In this document: one piece after another, positions 48,286-54,645 of the stretch
How the letters are laid out: each line of letters opens with the position of its first letter
Position numbering within the stretch: the stretch's first letter is position 1
NCBI RefSeq assembly: GCF_021729015.1
Contig: NZ_JAJQQZ010000001.1
Coordinates: 1,116,001-1,180,000 of the forward strand
Length of the DNA: 64,000 nt
Reading direction: 5' to 3'
From: Halobacterium rubrum
Lineage (GTDB): Archaea; Halobacteriota; Halobacteria; Halobacteriales; Halobacteriaceae
Position numbers and translations under genes: made by a program
The notes under the pieces: model-generated
Databases searched by the model: none
Told to the model about the DNA's origin: nothing
The model's input: the letters and a program-made list of their open reading frames with translations, nothing else

Positions 48286-48800
48286 TACTCCTCACCCCCC
48301 TCTGCCGCTTCTTCCTCTGCCTGTTCTTCCTTGATAGCCTCGACGTTGACGCCGATGGTGCCCTCCGTACGACCGGTGGACTTCGTGCGCTGACCGCGGA
48401 CCTTCTGTCCGCGCTCGTGACGGATGCCCTTGTACGAGCGGATCATCCGCATGCGGTTGATGTCCTGGTCGCGGGTGAGCCCCACGTCGTTGCCCGTGAT
48501 GTGCTGGTCCTCGCCGGAGTAGAAGTCGTTCTGGCGGTTCGCCAGCCACTCGGGGGCGTGCTCGGTGAAGCTGTCGACGGCTTCGGTGACGCTCTCGATG
48601 GCGTCGTCCTCGAGGCCGCCCATCGTCGCGGTTCGATCGACGCCGGCTTCCTCGGCGACGACCCGCGCGACGCGACGGCCGACGCCGTCGAGCTCCGCGA
48701 GAGCACGCTCGACGGACTTGGTGCCGTCGAGGTCTGTCTGGCCGATGCGGACGAAGTACTGAATGTCCTCGTCCACGTCTTCTTGTTCTTCCGAACTCAT
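48285..48800 (-). CDS. rps13: 30S ribosomal protein S13
   Basis: 171 residues. [20 protein letters not shown], then [17 protein letters not shown] and the basic [20 protein letters not shown] are the S13/S18e signature. It contacts tRNAs and bridges the subunits. It is the first protein gene of the rps13-rps4-rps11-rpoD operon and starts 21 bases after the 3' end of tRNA-Ser(GCU). Confidence 0.96.
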
Positions 48801-48821
48801 GATTGGGTTGTCTGTGAAAGG

Positions 48822-48904
48822 CGTCGTGGCGGGGATTTGAACCCCGGAGGCTTACGCCACAGAGTTAGCAACCCTGCGCCTTGACCAGGCTAGGCTACCA
48901 CGAC
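48822..48904 (-). tRNA. tRNA-Ser, anticodon GCU
   Basis: An 83-base class II tRNA. Acceptor GTCGTGG pairs with CCACGAC, followed by discriminator G, the serine identity base. The anticodon stem CAGGG/CTCTG (one wobble pair) encloses loop TTGCTAA, giving anticodon GCT (codons AGC/AGU). It has a long variable arm and a CCGGGG/CCCCG-type T-arm. A TATA-like GTTTAAGTG on the minus strand near 48985 suggests a primary transcript starting ~60 bases upstream and running into rps13. Confidence 0.94.
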
Positions 48905-49134
48905 AGGCTTTCGCGTGTATCTTCGCCCTCTCGGACTCGGGGCCTGGGCCCCTACAGTGACTGCACTCGTGCGAACTCGGGCACGGCACTTAAACACTAC
49001 GAAGGGCGGCGCCAGAATCCGCACCCAGCGTGGGTATGCGGCCCACACACGCGACCACGCGACTCCGGCGACGGCCGCCGGCCCATCCACCGCCGACACA
49101 ACCCTTATCGGCCGACCCGGCCCTATCCGAACCC

Positions 49135-50166
49135 ATGAACGAAGACGACGTCCTCGCGCTCCTCGAAGGCGTCGAGGACCCCGCCCTCGGCGACGACATC
49201 GTCTCTCTCGGCCTCGTCAACGACCTCGACGTCGACGGCGACACCGTCACCATCTCGCTCGCGCTGGGCGCCCCCTACTCGCCGACCGAGAACGACATCG
49301 CCGCACGCGTACGCGAAGTACTCCAAGCCGAGGGCCTGGAGCCGGACCTCACCGCCGCCATCCCCGACCGCGCCGAGACGGAGGTCCTCCCCGGCGTCAA
49401 GAACGTCGTCGCCGTCGCCTCCGGCAAAGGCGGTGTCGGTAAATCCACGGTCGCCGTCAACCTCGCCGCCGGCCTCGCCGACCGCGGCGCCCGCGTCGGC
49501 CTCTTCGACGCCGACATCTACGGCCCGAACGTCCCCCGCATGGTCGACGCCGACGACCACCCACAGGCCACCGAGAGCGAGACCATCGTCCCGCCCGAGA
49601 AACACGGCATGAAGCTCATGAGCATGGCGTTCATGGTCGGCGAAGACGACCCCGTCATCTGGCGCGGCCCGATGGTCCACAAGGTCCTCACCCAGCTCAT
49701 CGAGGACGTCGAGTGGGGCCACCTCGACTACCTCGTCGTCGACCTCCCGCCGGGCACCGGCGACACCCAGCTCACCCTCCTCCAGACGCTCCCGCTCACG
49801 GGCTCCGTCGTGGTCACCACTCCCGAGGACGTCGCCGTCGACGACGCCCGCAAAGGCCTCCGCATGTTCGGCCGCCACGACACCACCGTCCTCGGCGTCG
49901 TCGAGAACATGTCCACGTTCGTCTGCCCCGACTGCGGCGGCACCCACGACATCTTCGGCGCCGGCGGCGGCCAGGACTTCGCCGACGCCAACGACCTCCC
50001 GTTCCTCGGCTCCATCCCCCTCGACCCCAGCGTCCGCCAGGGCGGCGACCAGGGTGCCCCCGTCGTCCTCGACGAGGACAACCAGACGGGCGACTCCTTC
50101 CGCGAGTTCGCCGCCGAAACCGCCGACATGCTCGGCTTCGTCCAGCGACGAGGAGTCGGTGAATGA
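49135..50166 (+). CDS. mrp: Mrp/NBP35-type iron-sulfur carrier P-loop ATPase
   Basis: 343 residues from the ATG at 49135. Residues 1-80 form a MIP18/PaaD-like (DUF59) domain (VLALLEGVEDPALGDDIVSL). The deviant Walker A VASGKGGVGKSTVAVNLA is near residue 97, VDLPPGTGDTQLT near residue 203, and a CPDCGG pair near residue 262. The CxxC of two monomers holds a transferable 4Fe-4S cluster. The protein assembles or delivers iron-sulfur clusters in the cytoplasm. A TATA-like cttatcgg lies ~27 bases before the start. It overlaps the next gene as ATGA. Confidence 0.93.
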   Translation: MNEDDVLALLEGVEDPALGDDIVSLGLVNDLDVDGDTVTISLALGAPYSPTENDIAARVREVLQAEGLEPDLTAAIPDRAETEVLPGVKNVVAVASGKGGVGKSTVAVNLAAGLADRGARVGLFDADIYGPNVPRMVDADDHPQATESETIVPPEKHGMKLMSMAFMVGEDDPVIWRGPMVHKVLTQLIEDVEWGHLDYLVVDLPPGTGDTQLTLLQTLPLTGSVVVTTPEDVAVDDARKGLRMFGRHDTTVLGVVENMSTFVCPDCGGTHDIFGAGGGQDFADANDLPFLGSIPLDPSVRQGGDQGAPVVLDEDNQTGDSFREFAAETADMLGFVQRRGVGE

Positions 50167-50381
50167 CCGGGGACTTCGACGACACACAGAAACGCGACGC
50201 CCTCCGCGAGGTCGCCGACGACCTCCGCGACGAAGACTCAGACGAAGCCGAACGTATCGCCGCACTCGTCCACCGCGTCAGCGACATCTACGACGACGCA
50301 GAAGACGTCGACGCCCAGCACGTCTACCTCAACATGCGGAACATCCTCCAGATCTCCGAACAGGGCGGCATCGAACGGTAA
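50163..50381 (+). CDS. Small conserved-looking protein coupled to mrp
   Basis: 72 residues, acidic and almost wholly helical by composition (REVADDLRDEDSDEAERIAA, then ALVHRVSDIYDD). The C-terminal part has HVYLNMRNILQISEQGG. There are no cysteines, so it is not a cluster scaffold. Its ATG overlaps the mrp stop, implying translational coupling. I do not recognise the family. A helper or regulator of Mrp is a guess from context only. Confidence 0.65.
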   Translation: MTGDFDDTQKRDALREVADDLRDEDSDEAERIAALVHRVSDIYDDAEDVDAQHVYLNMRNILQISEQGGIER

Positions 50382-50390
50382 CCCGGCTGC

Positions 50391-51344
50391 CTACCGCCGC
50401 CAGAACCAGAACCCGCCGACGACCAGCAGGACGACGAGTACCGCCCCCGCTTTCGAGGCAGTTTCAGAAATCGGGTCTACGTCTGGACCGCCGTACTTCT
50501 TCTTCGCCGACTCGTTCTCGTAGTACACCTCTCGCTGTTCGATCTCCCGATCTGTTGGAATCTCTCCGAATTCCGGCTCCCAGATCTCGTAGGTTCCATT
50601 CGGGTAGGACACGAAACTCATGCGGTCGAATTTCGTTCCAGGGTTGAATTTGCCTCCGTACAGCCGGACGGTTCCGACGATGACACCGTCGTTCGATTCA
50701 CTGAGACGTACCGAGTACCGTCCACCGGGGCTCCCGTCGGGTGCGTCGTTCAGGTAACGCGAATCAGATTCGAACGTTCGTACTTCTGCCTCTGGGACGT
50801 AGGTTCGTCTGCCTTCGTTCTCGACCTCAAGAATGACCCGAGGCTGCCCGCTCTTCGTCCCGTTTCGTTTCACCGTTAGGCTCTCGAAGTGTGGTGTCGG
50901 GACACCCTGTTCATTCATCGTATCTATCTCTTGAGTGAAATTGAAATAGAACGTGCCGTTGTGTGAAGAAACTCTCACAGAGTGGTTGTCTCTCGTCGCA
51001 TCGATGCCATCTGTAATAGTCCGATTGTCCGTGAACTCGTCACCTGGAGCTAATCTCACAGAGCCACTATCCGCGAAAGGTGCGTCGTCAACCCAAATGC
51101 TGTAACCGAAACTCTCGTTCTTCTCTCCAGTATTTTTTGCCACTGCACACACTCGCTGTGTGCTTTCATTGTACGTAATTGCGTACTCGACACGACTGAA
51201 GAAGTTACTCACCCCCGTCTCGGTTTGACCGTCACACTCTACCTCTGGCGGTTCGTCGGCTACTTGGTTTGCTGTCGCAGGTGCAGCAAGCAGCAACGAC
51301 ATCCCGAGGAGCACGCTGAGTATGAGGCTAGAAGCTTTCTGCAT
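50391..51344 (-). CDS. Secreted, membrane-anchored glycoprotein-like protein
   Basis: 317 residues. A signal peptide (residues 1-25, MQKASSLILSVLLGMSLLLA) is followed by a soluble beta-rich ectodomain with nine N-x-S/T glycosylation sequons. A C-terminal membrane helix (KAGAVLVVLLVVGGFWFW, residues ~297-314) ends in two arginines, so it is a type I surface protein. The ectodomain resembles CARDB/Ig-like modules but no family is certain. It overlaps the upstream PKD-protein gene by 17 bases. The low G+C of both sets them apart from the surroundings. Confidence 0.75.
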   Translation of the reverse strand: MQKASSLILSVLLGMSLLLAAPATANQVADEPPEVECDGQTETGVSNFFSRVEYAITYNESTQRVCAVAKNTGEKNESFGYSIWVDDAPFADSGSVRLAPGDEFTDNRTITDGIDATRDNHSVRVSSHNGTFYFNFTQEIDTMNEQGVPTPHFESLTVKRNGTKSGQPRVILEVENEGRRTYVPEAEVRTFESDSRYLNDAPDGSPGGRYSVRLSESNDGVIVGTVRLYGGKFNPGTKFDRMSFVSYPNGTYEIWEPEFGEIPTDREIEQREVYYENESAKKKYGGPDVDPISETASKAGAVLVVLLVVGGFWFWRR

Positions 51345-54300
51345 GTGTTTTGTTCGACTCCTCTCGGATGATATTATTAGCTTCTTCGATTGGAACGAAT
51401 CGGTCGGCTGTTTCGGTGACGTCTACAACCCGTTCGTTAGTAACAATCTTTGAGCGTACCGACGGATCCGGTGGGAGATACCGTGCCTCAACGTGAGCCC
51501 TTGCGGTCATTCTAGTCTCGACGACGCTGGACCGCTGTTCGGGTGCATCGGTAACTCGAGTGACCGTGCCGTCCTGTCTTCGCAGCGTCCACTCAAGGGT
51601 TCGATCGGTGCTGGCCTGCCGGATGTCCGGGGTCGTCGTCATGACTGAAGCGGCCCGCTCGGTCGTCACTGTCTCGTGATGCTGCCACTCGTACTTCGCC
51701 GGTTGAACTTTCTCCCTCGTCGATACGTGGTATACCCGCTCCCAGTACGTCTCCGTCTCTTCGACGCGGTACTCGTACTGGCGCTCGTACTCCGCCCGCT
51801 CGACTGTCCGTGTTCTGGTGTCTCCAGTCCAGTCGTGGGTAGGATTCCGTGGGAAAGAGGACCAGTAGTCGTGCTCTGTGGTCCGCGTCTCTTCGGTCGT
51901 CGTCTCGACGGTGTACGTCCGACAGCCCAGCCCCGGGAGACAACTCTCACGTTCCTCCTCTTCGGTCACTTGTACCGTGTACTCCGTCTCGTATTCGTAC
52001 TCTCGGAGCGTCTCCACCTCCGCAGGTTCGACCCTGACCCGCCGGGTGTCACCCGTGAGTTCACCGGGGCCGCCGCGGTAGTCGCGCCAGACCCGGTCCA
52101 CCTGTGTACGCTCACGTCGTTCCTCACTCGTCCCGTCGGCCTGCCAGCTATCAGTTCCGTCGAGGAACAACTGCCGCTGGAATTTGCTGTCGAAATCCTT
52201 GGTGACGGTTTCCCACTGCGCCGGCTGGGTCTTCACGTGTTTCTCAAGGTGATACTCGGTCCCGGACTGCCGAGCAGTGTAGAGGTCGAAGCCCATCCGC
52301 TGCAACGCCTCTTTCCGCTCGGACTTCGCAGTTCTTTCTACCTCGTATTGGGGGTGCTCCTCAACGTACTGCACGTCGAACTCCCAGAGATCGACCGACG
52401 ACCCGATCTGGTCGTACATTCTCGGGTCTGGTAGTTCGACTTCGCGGAATGCTTCGTCCTGACTCGTCGACTGGATCCTGACCGTCGGCTGGTCTCCTCT
52501 CAGGAATTCGCTCGCTGGAAGCGAAACGAACCATTCGTGGAAGATGTACGAATCCTCGAACCCCTCAGGACGGCTCTGGTCGAAACTACCGCCATTCTCG
52601 TTCTCCCAGTAGCGGCTGTGACCACCGACGCTGCCTACGTCAGAAACTAGTTCGAAGTCTATTAGCTTGCCTAACTCTTCTTTCTCGTACACTGCCTGAG
52701 AAAGCTCGTACTCACTCGTCCGAACCCGGTACGTTACGGTATCTTGCGGGAAGACCGTCTCGACGTTCTGTGCCTCTGGCGACTGGATTCCAGGGACAAA
52801 CCATTCGAGTATACTATACGTCTTATTGGACTGATCCTGCTCATCGGTTATATTCAAATAAATTAGTTTCCGTGGATGGAGTTGTTTGATTGGGCCCCTC
52901 CACTCGTCACTGTTGTTCGCGTCTTTCCATTGGAAAGTTAGATTTGAACCATCCGGATCAAATGACTCCGAGGCGTCGAAGGTCGCTCCGAGGCTACCGA
53001 CCCGGTTCTGCCCATCGACCAACTCTAGACGGATAACTGGCTCCGAGAGTTCACTGTACGTAGTTCCGCTGACTCCGTCTACCGGCTGTCGGGTGTTTCC
53101 TCGCTCCCAGTACACTGCACCGGTTGCGTTGATGGTCCCCTCGTACACTCTCGAGTAGTTTTGTTGGATGGTCAAACCGTATCCTCGGGAGGGGGTCCGG
53201 GTCTGTGATTCGGAGATAGAAACGAGGTCTTTTCTCGGCTCTCGGAACTCTGCGACGGCAAGTTCCGGGTCGACGCCGTTGAGCTCGATGTCGATTTGGA
53301 ACTTGCCGGTGTAGTCTTCTGGGTCGAGCTTCGGGTGTCTCGAGGTGAGTGGTTCGTCGTTGACGAACCGGGCGTCCATGACCACTGGTGGCCCCGGGAC
53401 GTGGATAGTTCGGGTGGCGGAGTCGGTCTGTCCTCGCGAGTCGGTGGCTCTGACTGTGATGTTCCGGTTGCCGGGAGGGATGGCTGTGTAGCGTTCGAGG
53501 ACAGCGAGGTAGCCGCCGCCACTGGACCGACGTTCGATGCCGCCGACCGTTTCACTGCTTTTGACGTTGCCGTCGACGAGGATTTCGATCGTCTGGAGGT
53601 TCGCGAGGTCGTCGGTTGCGTAGGCTTCGACGGTGACGACGCTCTCCTCGGTCACTCGTTCGAGGTGGACGTCCGGAGCGGGGTCAGCGACGACGGTGCG
53701 GGTGCCGTCGGGGAAGTTCGCGACGCCGCCGCTGTCGGGTGCGGCGTAGAGTTCGTGGGTGCCGGGGGCGAGCGTGAGCGTCGCGGTGCTGCCTACGCCG
53801 GCGTGCCGGTCGTCGAGGAACCAGTCGCCTGCGGCGCCGTCGGTGAGGCTGTACGTGGCGTCGAGAACGGTGTCGCCGGTTACGACTCGTGGGCCGTCGA
53901 CGTGCGGGGAGCCCGGATTATCCTCGGTGGTGGTCTCTTCGTCCGGTGGGTCGCCGGTGGGGTCGACAGTACCCGACGCGGAGACAGTCACAGTCCGGGT
54001 GGCGTTGCCTCGCTGGTCGTCTGTGTCGACAGCGACAGCACGGATTTCGTGGCCGCCCGAGTCGGGAAACTGGAGTCGCTGGTCGGTGGACGCAGCGGTA
54101 CCCTCGATGTCCTCGGAACTGTGGCGTTCGCCGTCGACGTACCAGACGACGCGGTCGAGTCGTGCGGCGCCCGCCGAGACGCTTGTCGAGTACGTGGCGC
54201 GTTCGCCGGTCGCGAGCTGTGTGGGGCCGGCCAGTGACACCGACGGTGGTGCGCCCGGTTCGACGTCGACGTACAGCGTGTCCGTCGCCGTGGCGCCGTC

Positions 54301-54606
54301 GTCGTCCGTGACGGTGAGTGTGACCTCGTGTTCGCCGACCGCGCTGGCGGGGAACTGCGCCTGTTCGCAGTCGACGCAGTCCAATGTCGTCGTCGAGCCG
54401 TCGGGGGCTTCGACGGTCCACTCGTAGTTGGCGATTGTGCCGTCGGGGTCTCTAGAACCGCCGGCGTCGAGGTGGATAGTGGTGCTGCGGGTGACCGTCT
54501 GGTCGAGCCCGGCGTCCGCGAGCGGTGCTTCGTTGGGTGCTGCGATGGCGGGGGTGGTTGCTGCCGTGACGAGTAGCAGGACTGCGAGCAGGCTCGTATA
54601 TTTCAC
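51328..54606 (-). CDS. Large secreted PKD-domain protein
   Basis: 1092 residues from a GTG start. A signal peptide (residues ~1-23) precedes a PKD domain (residues ~25-117: ADAGLDQTVTRSTTIHLDAG, then SRDPDGTIANYEW), a second Ig/PKD-like module to ~210, a linker rich in T/E/D, and further beta modules to ~600. From ~700 the protein is charged and tyrosine-rich. Two related units start with TGDTRRVRVEPAEVE (~855) and TGDTRTRTVERAEYE (~930). It has no membrane anchor or PGF-CTERM, so it is probably released or held by the co-encoded membrane protein. A TATA box lies at 54633-54645. Confidence 0.78.
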   Translation of the reverse strand: MKYTSLLAVLLLVTAATTPAIAAPNEAPLADAGLDQTVTRSTTIHLDAGGSRDPDGTIANYEWTVEAPDGSTTTLDCVDCEQAQFPASAVGEHEVTLTVTDDDGATATDTLYVDVEPGAPPSVSLAGPTQLATGERATYSTSVSAGAARLDRVVWYVDGERHSSEDIEGTAASTDQRLQFPDSGGHEIRAVAVDTDDQRGNATRTVTVSASGTVDPTGDPPDEETTTEDNPGSPHVDGPRVVTGDTVLDATYSLTDGAAGDWFLDDRHAGVGSTATLTLAPGTHELYAAPDSGGVANFPDGTRTVVADPAPDVHLERVTEESVVTVEAYATDDLANLQTIEILVDGNVKSSETVGGIERRSSGGGYLAVLERYTAIPPGNRNITVRATDSRGQTDSATRTIHVPGPPVVMDARFVNDEPLTSRHPKLDPEDYTGKFQIDIELNGVDPELAVAEFREPRKDLVSISESQTRTPSRGYGLTIQQNYSRVYEGTINATGAVYWERGNTRQPVDGVSGTTYSELSEPVIRLELVDGQNRVGSLGATFDASESFDPDGSNLTFQWKDANNSDEWRGPIKQLHPRKLIYLNITDEQDQSNKTYSILEWFVPGIQSPEAQNVETVFPQDTVTYRVRTSEYELSQAVYEKEELGKLIDFELVSDVGSVGGHSRYWENENGGSFDQSRPEGFEDSYIFHEWFVSLPASEFLRGDQPTVRIQSTSQDEAFREVELPDPRMYDQIGSSVDLWEFDVQYVEEHPQYEVERTAKSERKEALQRMGFDLYTARQSGTEYHLEKHVKTQPAQWETVTKDFDSKFQRQLFLDGTDSWQADGTSEERRERTQVDRVWRDYRGGPGELTGDTRRVRVEPAEVETLREYEYETEYTVQVTEEEERESCLPGLGCRTYTVETTTEETRTTEHDYWSSFPRNPTHDWTGDTRTRTVERAEYERQYEYRVEETETYWERVYHVSTREKVQPAKYEWQHHETVTTERAASVMTTTPDIRQASTDRTLEWTLRRQDGTVTRVTDAPEQRSSVVETRMTARAHVEARYLPPDPSVRSKIVTNERVVDVTETADRFVPIEEANNIIREESNKTHAESF

Positions 54607-54632: not shown

Positions 54633-54645
54633 GGTATTTAAAATT
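54633..54645 (-). promoter_or_regulatory. TATA box of the secreted-protein pair
   Basis: TAATTTTAAATACC-type sequence on the minus strand, 27-39 bases before the GTG at 54606. It supports that start and joint transcription of both genes. Confidence 0.5.

What the first reader, a model, noticed from the sequence alone, without database searches (positions are those of the whole stretch)
50391..54606. Lower-G+C cassette of two overlapping secreted proteins with no recognised function
Two genes overlap by 17 bases, share one promoter and are clearly richer in A+T than the flanking housekeeping genes (one 60-base stretch at 52801-52860 has 22 G+C). The first encodes a 1092-residue exported protein with PKD modules and a charged, tyrosine-rich C-terminus that holds two related TGDTR-initiated units. 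The second encodes a 317-residue, sequon-rich type I membrane protein. The large protein lacks any anchor, so the small one is a candidate tether. Together they look like a laterally acquired cell-surface or adhesion system inserted between mrp and korAB.
Basis: partly seen in the sequence, partly recalled or inferred. Interest (0 to 1): 0.65.

Follow-up and report, generated by a model that had tools for sequence, protein, structure and literature searches.

The report
Haloarchaeal swappable-tail surface protein pair
Beside two housekeeping gene clusters, a salt-loving archaeon carries an old, inherited pair of genes for a large secreted protein made of immunoglobulin-like modules and a small membrane-anchored partner that has never been found without it; other salt-loving archaea keep the same secreted head but attach different tails, often next to a different anchored partner, which suggests a modular cell-surface system of unknown role.

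Summary
In detail: on the minus strand a 1092-aa exported protein (51328-54606) and a 317-aa exported, C-terminally anchored protein (50391-51344) overlap by 17 nt and are AT-richer than their flanks. The lateral-insertion reading does not hold. mrp-orf72-[small<-large]-korA-korB is conserved across Halobacterium, related genera and another family. The pair's tree agrees with the korAB tree (16 of 23 splits; at most 2 by chance). The low GC3 recurs in every relative tested. Genomes without the pair show scars or clean joins at the site. The genes are inseparable: all 65 genomes (of 392) with an assessable large gene have the small gene beside it, and none has the small gene alone. The main new point is that the large protein's first ~210 residues are a haloarchaeal head (93 of 243 genomes, one copy each) joined to many unrelated tails. 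The small partner occurs only with this tail. Other tails often precede a lipoprotein gene instead (a CAP-domain lipoprotein at the korA site). Best explanation: a secreted PKD/Ig rod held on the cell by a tail-specific membrane anchor, for adhesion or recognition. Binding and function are inferred. The closest described system is VARTIG of Thermococcales.

The parts
51328..54606 (-). Large gene: 1092-aa exported protein, GTG start
   Evidence: ORF; start context conserved; full-length relatives in 65 of 392 genomes of the order plus one cut by a contig end
54538..54606 (-). Signal peptide of the large protein (about residues 1-23)
   Evidence: Hydrophobic N-terminus ending AIA|A; aligned in all relatives; cleavage point inferred
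54262..54534 (-). Head, first part: PKD domain with a C-x2-C motif (residues 25-115)
   Evidence: Pfam PKD_4 2.8e-13, K319L-like_PKD 2.7e-13; motif in A7
53977..54261 (-). Head, second part: Ig-like stretch (residues 116-210); end of the region shared with proteins that have other tails
   Evidence: Head profile A7 matches one copy per genome in 93 of 243 genomes
53395..53895 (-). Further Ig-like region (residues 238-404)
   Evidence: Conserved in form-A relatives; sub-threshold Ig-type Pfam matches
52417..53394 (-). Middle beta-sandwich region of the form-A tail (residues 405-730)
   Evidence: AlphaFold2 model, pLDDT mostly 75-90; Ig-type fold matches, best Z 8.6
51406..52413 (-). Form-A tail, long-beta-strand region (residues 732-1067), rich in E, T, R, Y, W
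   Evidence: Predicted strands of 20-30 residues; conserved W and Y columns; composition
51964..52056 (-). Repeat unit 1, TGDTRRVRVEPAEVETLREYEYE
   Evidence: hhalign against unit 2: probability 97.8, 46 columns
51742..51828 (-). Repeat unit 2, TGDTRTRTVERAEYERQYEYRVE
   Evidence: hhalign against unit 1
50391..51344 (-). Small gene: 317-aa exported, C-terminally anchored protein; overlaps the large gene by 17 nt
   Evidence: ORF; adjacent to every assessable large gene
51270..51344 (-). Signal peptide of the small protein (about residues 1-25)
   Evidence: Predicted helix 2-18 then APATA; conserved
50931..51227 (-). Ig-like domain 1 of the small protein (residues 40-138)
   Evidence: AlphaFold2 pLDDT about 90-96; best fold match V. 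cholerae RbmA, Z 9.9, rmsd 2.0 over 91 residues
50595..50900 (-). Ig-like domain 2 of the small protein (residues 149-250)
   Evidence: AlphaFold2 model; Ig-like domains of GH2 enzymes, Z about 8
50397..50465 (-). C-terminal transmembrane helix and basic tail (residues 294-316)
   Evidence: Helix 294-316 with pLDDT 90-95; present in the complete homologues read
54635..54643 (-). TATA-like element of the shared promoter (TTTTAAATA)
   Evidence: A similar element at the same distance in the Halobacterium relatives; function inferred

Best explanation
The two genes are one transcription unit that makes a two-part cell-surface structure. Both proteins are exported with signal peptides. The large protein is a rod: a conserved PKD head, further Ig-like domains, and a C-terminal third of very long beta strands. 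It has no anchor of its own. The small protein stands on the membrane by its C-terminal helix and shows two Ig-like domains outside. It holds the large protein by the tail, so that the head projects from the cell for adhesion or recognition. The locus is old and inherited with korAB and mrp. In other haloarchaea the same head carries another tail, often followed by a different membrane-anchored protein. Shown: gene order, strict co-occurrence, vertical descent, head/tail architecture, dependence of the small gene on this tail, predicted folds. Inferred: that the two are co-transcribed and bind, that the small protein tethers the large one, that the head is exposed, and adhesion or recognition as the purpose.
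For: Small gene beside the large gene in 65 of 65 assessable genomes, same strand and order, overlapping by 4-17 nt or within about 60 nt in the first 16 pairs measured. The small gene is missing from every locus read whose head carries another tail, so it goes with the tail. Other tails are followed within 400 nt by a lipoprotein-type gene in 23 of 56 loci against 43 of 389 control genes (Fisher p 1.9e-7), and in 6 of 7 uncut loci of the korA-site type; the korA-site ones tested are CAP-domain proteins. Distances in the large and small protein trees correlate beyond the korAB distance (partial r 0.87, 0 of 2000 permutations). The small protein is modelled as two Ig-like domains plus a TM helix. 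The large protein lacks any C-terminal anchor.
Against: No complex could be predicted and no binding was tested. Correlated rates may only reflect that both proteins are fast-evolving exteriors. The lipoprotein detector is home-made and permissive (11% background), and 33 of 56 other-tail loci gave no anchored partner by it. CAP partners go with two different tail clusters, so tail and partner are not strictly one to one. The long-strand region had no usable fold match.
Confidence: 0.5

Rival explanations
1. An effector and its protector, as in polymorphic toxin systems or VARTIG: the head is a delivery part, the changing tail is the active part, and the tail-specific anchored protein protects the producer.
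For: Conserved head with many unrelated tails and a tail-specific downstream gene. Makarova et al. 2021 (PMC8416519) describe this logic for VARTIG, with downstream membrane proteins.
Against: The form-A tail is about 880 residues of largely predicted beta structure, conserved across families and inherited vertically. No toxin domain in Pfam. One head copy per genome in the sample, with no cassettes of spare tails or immunity genes seen. A CAP domain is no known immunity protein (own knowledge).
Confidence: 0.17
2. A structural or processing component of the cell envelope that stabilises or spaces the S-layer, with no partner recognition role.
For: Sequon-rich, beta-sandwich, exported, widely inherited.
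Against: Present in only 66 of 392 genomes in this form and lost cleanly in close relatives, so not basic to the envelope. Sequence changes about seven times faster than korAB (tree lengths 16.6 and 2.4).
Confidence: 0.15
3. A secreted binding or hydrolysis module for polysaccharide, with the anchored protein keeping it near the cell.
For: PKD and Sde0182_C-like stretches occur in polysaccharide-binding enzymes; fold matches to Ig-like domains of GH2 enzymes.
Against: No catalytic domain is recognised in either protein, and the Ig matches are generic.
Confidence: 0.1
4. A laterally acquired cassette recently inserted between mrp and korAB.
For: AT-rich compared with its flanks; patchy presence.
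Against: Same site in several families; pair and korAB trees agree; scars of loss in G003 and G021; equally AT-rich in all relatives tested; no plasmid or viral relatives found.
Confidence: 0.03

Closest known systems
VARTIG modules of Thermococcales (Makarova et al. 2021, PMC8416519)
   Same: A large secreted protein of Ig-like domains encoded first in an operon, smaller membrane-associated proteins after it, variable C-terminal part.
   Different: Here the head is a PKD module at a fixed, inherited site, normally one copy per genome, with one downstream partner; variation is between genera by whole-tail exchange, not hypervariable between strains. The authors found no VARTIG-like module in other archaea; arCOG07710 membership was not tested here.
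Polymorphic toxin systems
   Same: Constant head, changing tail, tail-associated downstream gene.
   Different: No toxin domain, no immunity cassettes, long conserved beta tail.
RbmA, biofilm scaffold of Vibrio cholerae
   Same: Fold of one Ig/FnIII-like domain of the small protein (Z 9.9 over 91 residues).
   Different: RbmA is secreted and soluble (own knowledge); sequence identity about 11%; a shared fold does not show shared function.
PKD- and CARDB-type archaeal surface proteins (E-set Ig folds)
   Same: PKD in the head; weak CARDB similarity in two small-protein homologues.
   Different: The head has a conserved signature (PLADAGLDQ, C-x2-C, DTLYV) and travels as a unit; the tail matches no Pfam family over its length.

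Membership tests
PKD domain proteins | PKD domain above curated cut-off | tested here: met
   PKD_4 50.2 bits against cut-off 27
CARDB | CARDB match above curated cut-off in the small protein | tested here: not met
   No match in the window protein; 2 of 43 homologues weakly, best E 0.00045
VARTIG | Large Ig-domain secreted protein encoded first in an operon with membrane proteins downstream | tested here: met
VARTIG | Hypervariable, recombining C-terminal Ig domain among close relatives | tested here: not met
   Form-A tail inherited vertically; tail clusters mostly follow genera or larger groups
VARTIG | arCOG07710 membership | not tested
   arCOG profiles were not available
Polymorphic toxin system | Recognisable C-terminal toxin domain | tested here: not met
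   None in Pfam or NCBIfam for the window protein, nor in Pfam for 45 tails
Polymorphic toxin system | Cognate downstream protector | not testable with these tools
   A tail-specific downstream gene exists, but protection needs experiment
Archaeosortase substrates (PGF-CTERM type) | C-terminal sorting signal above cut-off | tested here: not met
   No NCBIfam model reaches its cut-off; GVDTG_CTERM only 14.8 bits against 29 for the small protein
RbmA-like biofilm scaffold | Sequence homology to RbmA | tested here: inconclusive
   Fold similarity only, 11% identity
Recently acquired island | Absence of the genes at the same site in relatives, and a tree that conflicts with the host | tested here: not met

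The most novel reading that the evidence does not exclude
Haloarchaea have a modular recognition system: one conserved PKD head gene at an ancestral site next to korAB, fitted in different lineages with different tails, each with its own membrane-anchored partner, used to tell kin from stranger or to choose partners for adhesion and cell fusion; a haloarchaeal counterpart of VARTIG, of which its discoverers found none outside Thermococcales.
Probability: 0.2. Interest if true: 0.75.

Novelty: new variant of a known kind. Interest (0 to 1): 0.5.

Why it matters
Little is known about how haloarchaea recognise and hold on to each other, although they form biofilms and fuse to exchange DNA. A normally single-copy head gene with exchangeable tails and tail-matched anchors gives a defined, small, genetically accessible candidate: two genes, in Halobacterium, with near relatives that lost them cleanly as natural controls. 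It also warns that a low-GC dip in a haloarchaeal genome can be an old, inherited feature of exported proteins and not a sign of recent transfer.

Tried and rejected
Recent lateral insertion: rejected. Plasmid or viral origin: no match for the small protein or the tail in 72,556 plasmids and none for the large-protein alignment in viral contigs; the viral scan with the small-protein alignment could not run. First genome-contig scan with the single large protein found nothing; the alignment worked. Full-length folding of the large protein failed, so only residues 405-1092 were modelled. Fold searches of that model returned only generic Ig chains covering residues 405-730; the long-strand part is effectively untested. 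Common origin of the small protein and the lipoprotein partners: not detected (hmmsearch no hits; hhalign probability about 5). Relatives outside haloarchaea: only a short PKD-like stretch. A first gene-calling pass mis-called some antisense ORFs and was replaced. Literature searches found no study of this locus.
Full report
WHAT IS THERE. The window is from a haloarchaeon of the genus Halobacterium (a held genome of the same genus, G005, matches Halobacterium bonnevillei in contig length and gene order). On the minus strand lie a 1092-aa ORF with GTG start (51328-54606) and a 317-aa ORF (50391-51344) that overlaps it by 17 nt. The start of the large gene is fixed by conserved upstream sequence in its relatives, and a TATA-like element lies 29-37 nt before it. 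The small gene starts inside the end of the large one in most close relatives (overlaps of 4-17 nt), so one promoter is likely.

THE PAIR IS ONE UNIT. In 392 genomes of the order, 66 carry the large C-terminal part, and in 65 of them the small gene is present; the exception, G040, is a 59%-complete genome in which the large gene is cut by a contig end. No genome has a strong small-gene match (E below 1e-20) without the large gene. The genes are adjacent on one strand in every genome read, with G041 split by a contig break inside the small gene.

THE SITE IS ANCESTRAL. mrp, a 72-aa gene, small, large, korA, korB stand in this order in Halobacterium, two further genera of its family, and Halorussus, Haladaptatus and Halomicrococcus of another family; some other lineages keep only the mrp side (G255, G383, Halomarina) or the korA side (G201, G265), and some have the pair elsewhere. 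Trees of korAB and of the pair for 26 loci share 16 of 23 splits, against a maximum of 2 in 1000 label shuffles; the pair changes about seven times faster. The third-position GC of both genes is below korA in all 24 loci compared, on average by 0.27, so the dip is a standing property and not a trace of recent arrival. Where the pair is missing, the site shows loss: G006 joins korA to the 72-aa gene with a 159-nt gap; G003 keeps what looks like the old promoter and the first codons of the large gene followed by the end of the small gene; G021 keeps the first 405 residues; G010 has an unrelated 261-aa gene there.

A HEAD WITH MANY TAILS. The first ~210 residues (signal peptide, a PKD domain with a C-x2-C motif, one Ig-like stretch) occur in many haloarchaea whose remaining sequence is unrelated. 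A profile of this head finds exactly one copy in each of 93 of 243 genomes, in 30 of 77 genera; a few genomes elsewhere, such as Halosimplex salinum, have two. Single-linkage clustering of 63 proteins puts all heads in one group and the tails in 26. In Halobaculum and Halolamina the head gene stands divergently next to korA, and in Halosimplex next to mrp, with other tails: the same gene position with the tail replaced. None of the other-tail proteins has a C-terminal membrane helix by the hydropathy screen. The small gene of our pair is found with none of them, so it belongs to the tail, not to the head.

OTHER TAILS, OTHER ANCHORS. Downstream of the other-tail genes, 23 of 56 loci have a lipoprotein-type gene within 400 nt, against 43 of 389 control genes (p 1.9e-7); at the korA site 6 of 7 uncut loci have one. 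These lipoproteins form two main families (13 and 8 members): one without a clear name, and one of CAP-domain proteins (three members tested, E down to 5.7e-17). CAP partners accompany two tail clusters, so the match of tail and partner is loose in that case. The detector is home-made, so the numbers are indicative.

STRUCTURE. The small protein is modelled (mean pLDDT 78.9) as two Ig-like domains and a C-terminal helix; domain 1 resembles RbmA of Vibrio cholerae (Z 9.9, 91 residues, 11% identity), domain 2 the Ig-like domains of GH2 enzymes. Residues 405-1092 of the large protein (mean pLDDT 80.1, pTM 0.45, so domain placement is uncertain) are beta-sandwiches followed by strands of 20-30 residues. 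This last region contains the TGDTR repeats. Its fold could not be tested properly.

HOW IT MAY WORK. Shown here: export signals, gene order, co-occurrence, descent, head/tail architecture, link of the small gene to this tail, predicted folds. Correlated rates of the two proteins beyond the korAB distance (partial r 0.87) agree with contact but do not prove it. Inferred: the small protein holds the large one by its long-strand tail, leaving the head exposed, for adhesion or recognition. The effector-and-protector reading is the main rival.

COMPARISON. VARTIG of Thermococcales (PMC8416519) is the nearest described system: large Ig protein first, membrane proteins after it, variable C-terminal part. 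Its authors searched other archaea and found no close counterpart. The present locus differs: inherited site, normally one copy, one partner, tail exchange between genera. It works on a similar plan but is not a VARTIG member by the hypervariability criterion. I rate it a new variant of a known kind.

LIMITS. Genome samples were drawn evenly, not exhaustively. No complex prediction was available. Two folding jobs were allowed, and the full-length job failed. Statements on adhesion rest on architecture alone.

Noticed in passing
window 48800-49135: A moaA-type radical-SAM gene stands divergently beside mrp in most relatives but is missing here and in G004; in G000, G004 and G006 a match covering only residues 3-243 of the query lies elsewhere in the genome.
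   Followed up: partly
window 50163-50381: A 72-aa acidic protein gene follows mrp with a 4-nt overlap and is kept in most genomes of the family, with or without the pair; function not examined.
   Followed up: no
L204, L210, L211, L214, L219, L221: Head proteins with a ~900-aa different tail next to korA are followed by a lipoprotein gene of CAP (cysteine-rich secretory protein) type in Halobaculum and Halolamina relatives.
   Followed up: partly
L166:9382-10215 and equivalents in Halosimplex: The other-tail head gene is followed by a ~270-aa protein without an evident export signal, unlike the other groups.
   Followed up: no
L125:2031-2816: In Halobacterium genome G010 the site between korA and the 72-aa gene holds an unrelated 261-aa gene with hydrophobic stretches.
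   Followed up: no
L121:4125-4703: Genome G260 has a second small-gene copy near a contig end, besides a complete pair on another contig.
   Followed up: no
L122:5739-6166: Scar of the pair in G003: promoter-like remnant and first codons of the large gene followed by the end of the small gene.
   Followed up: yes
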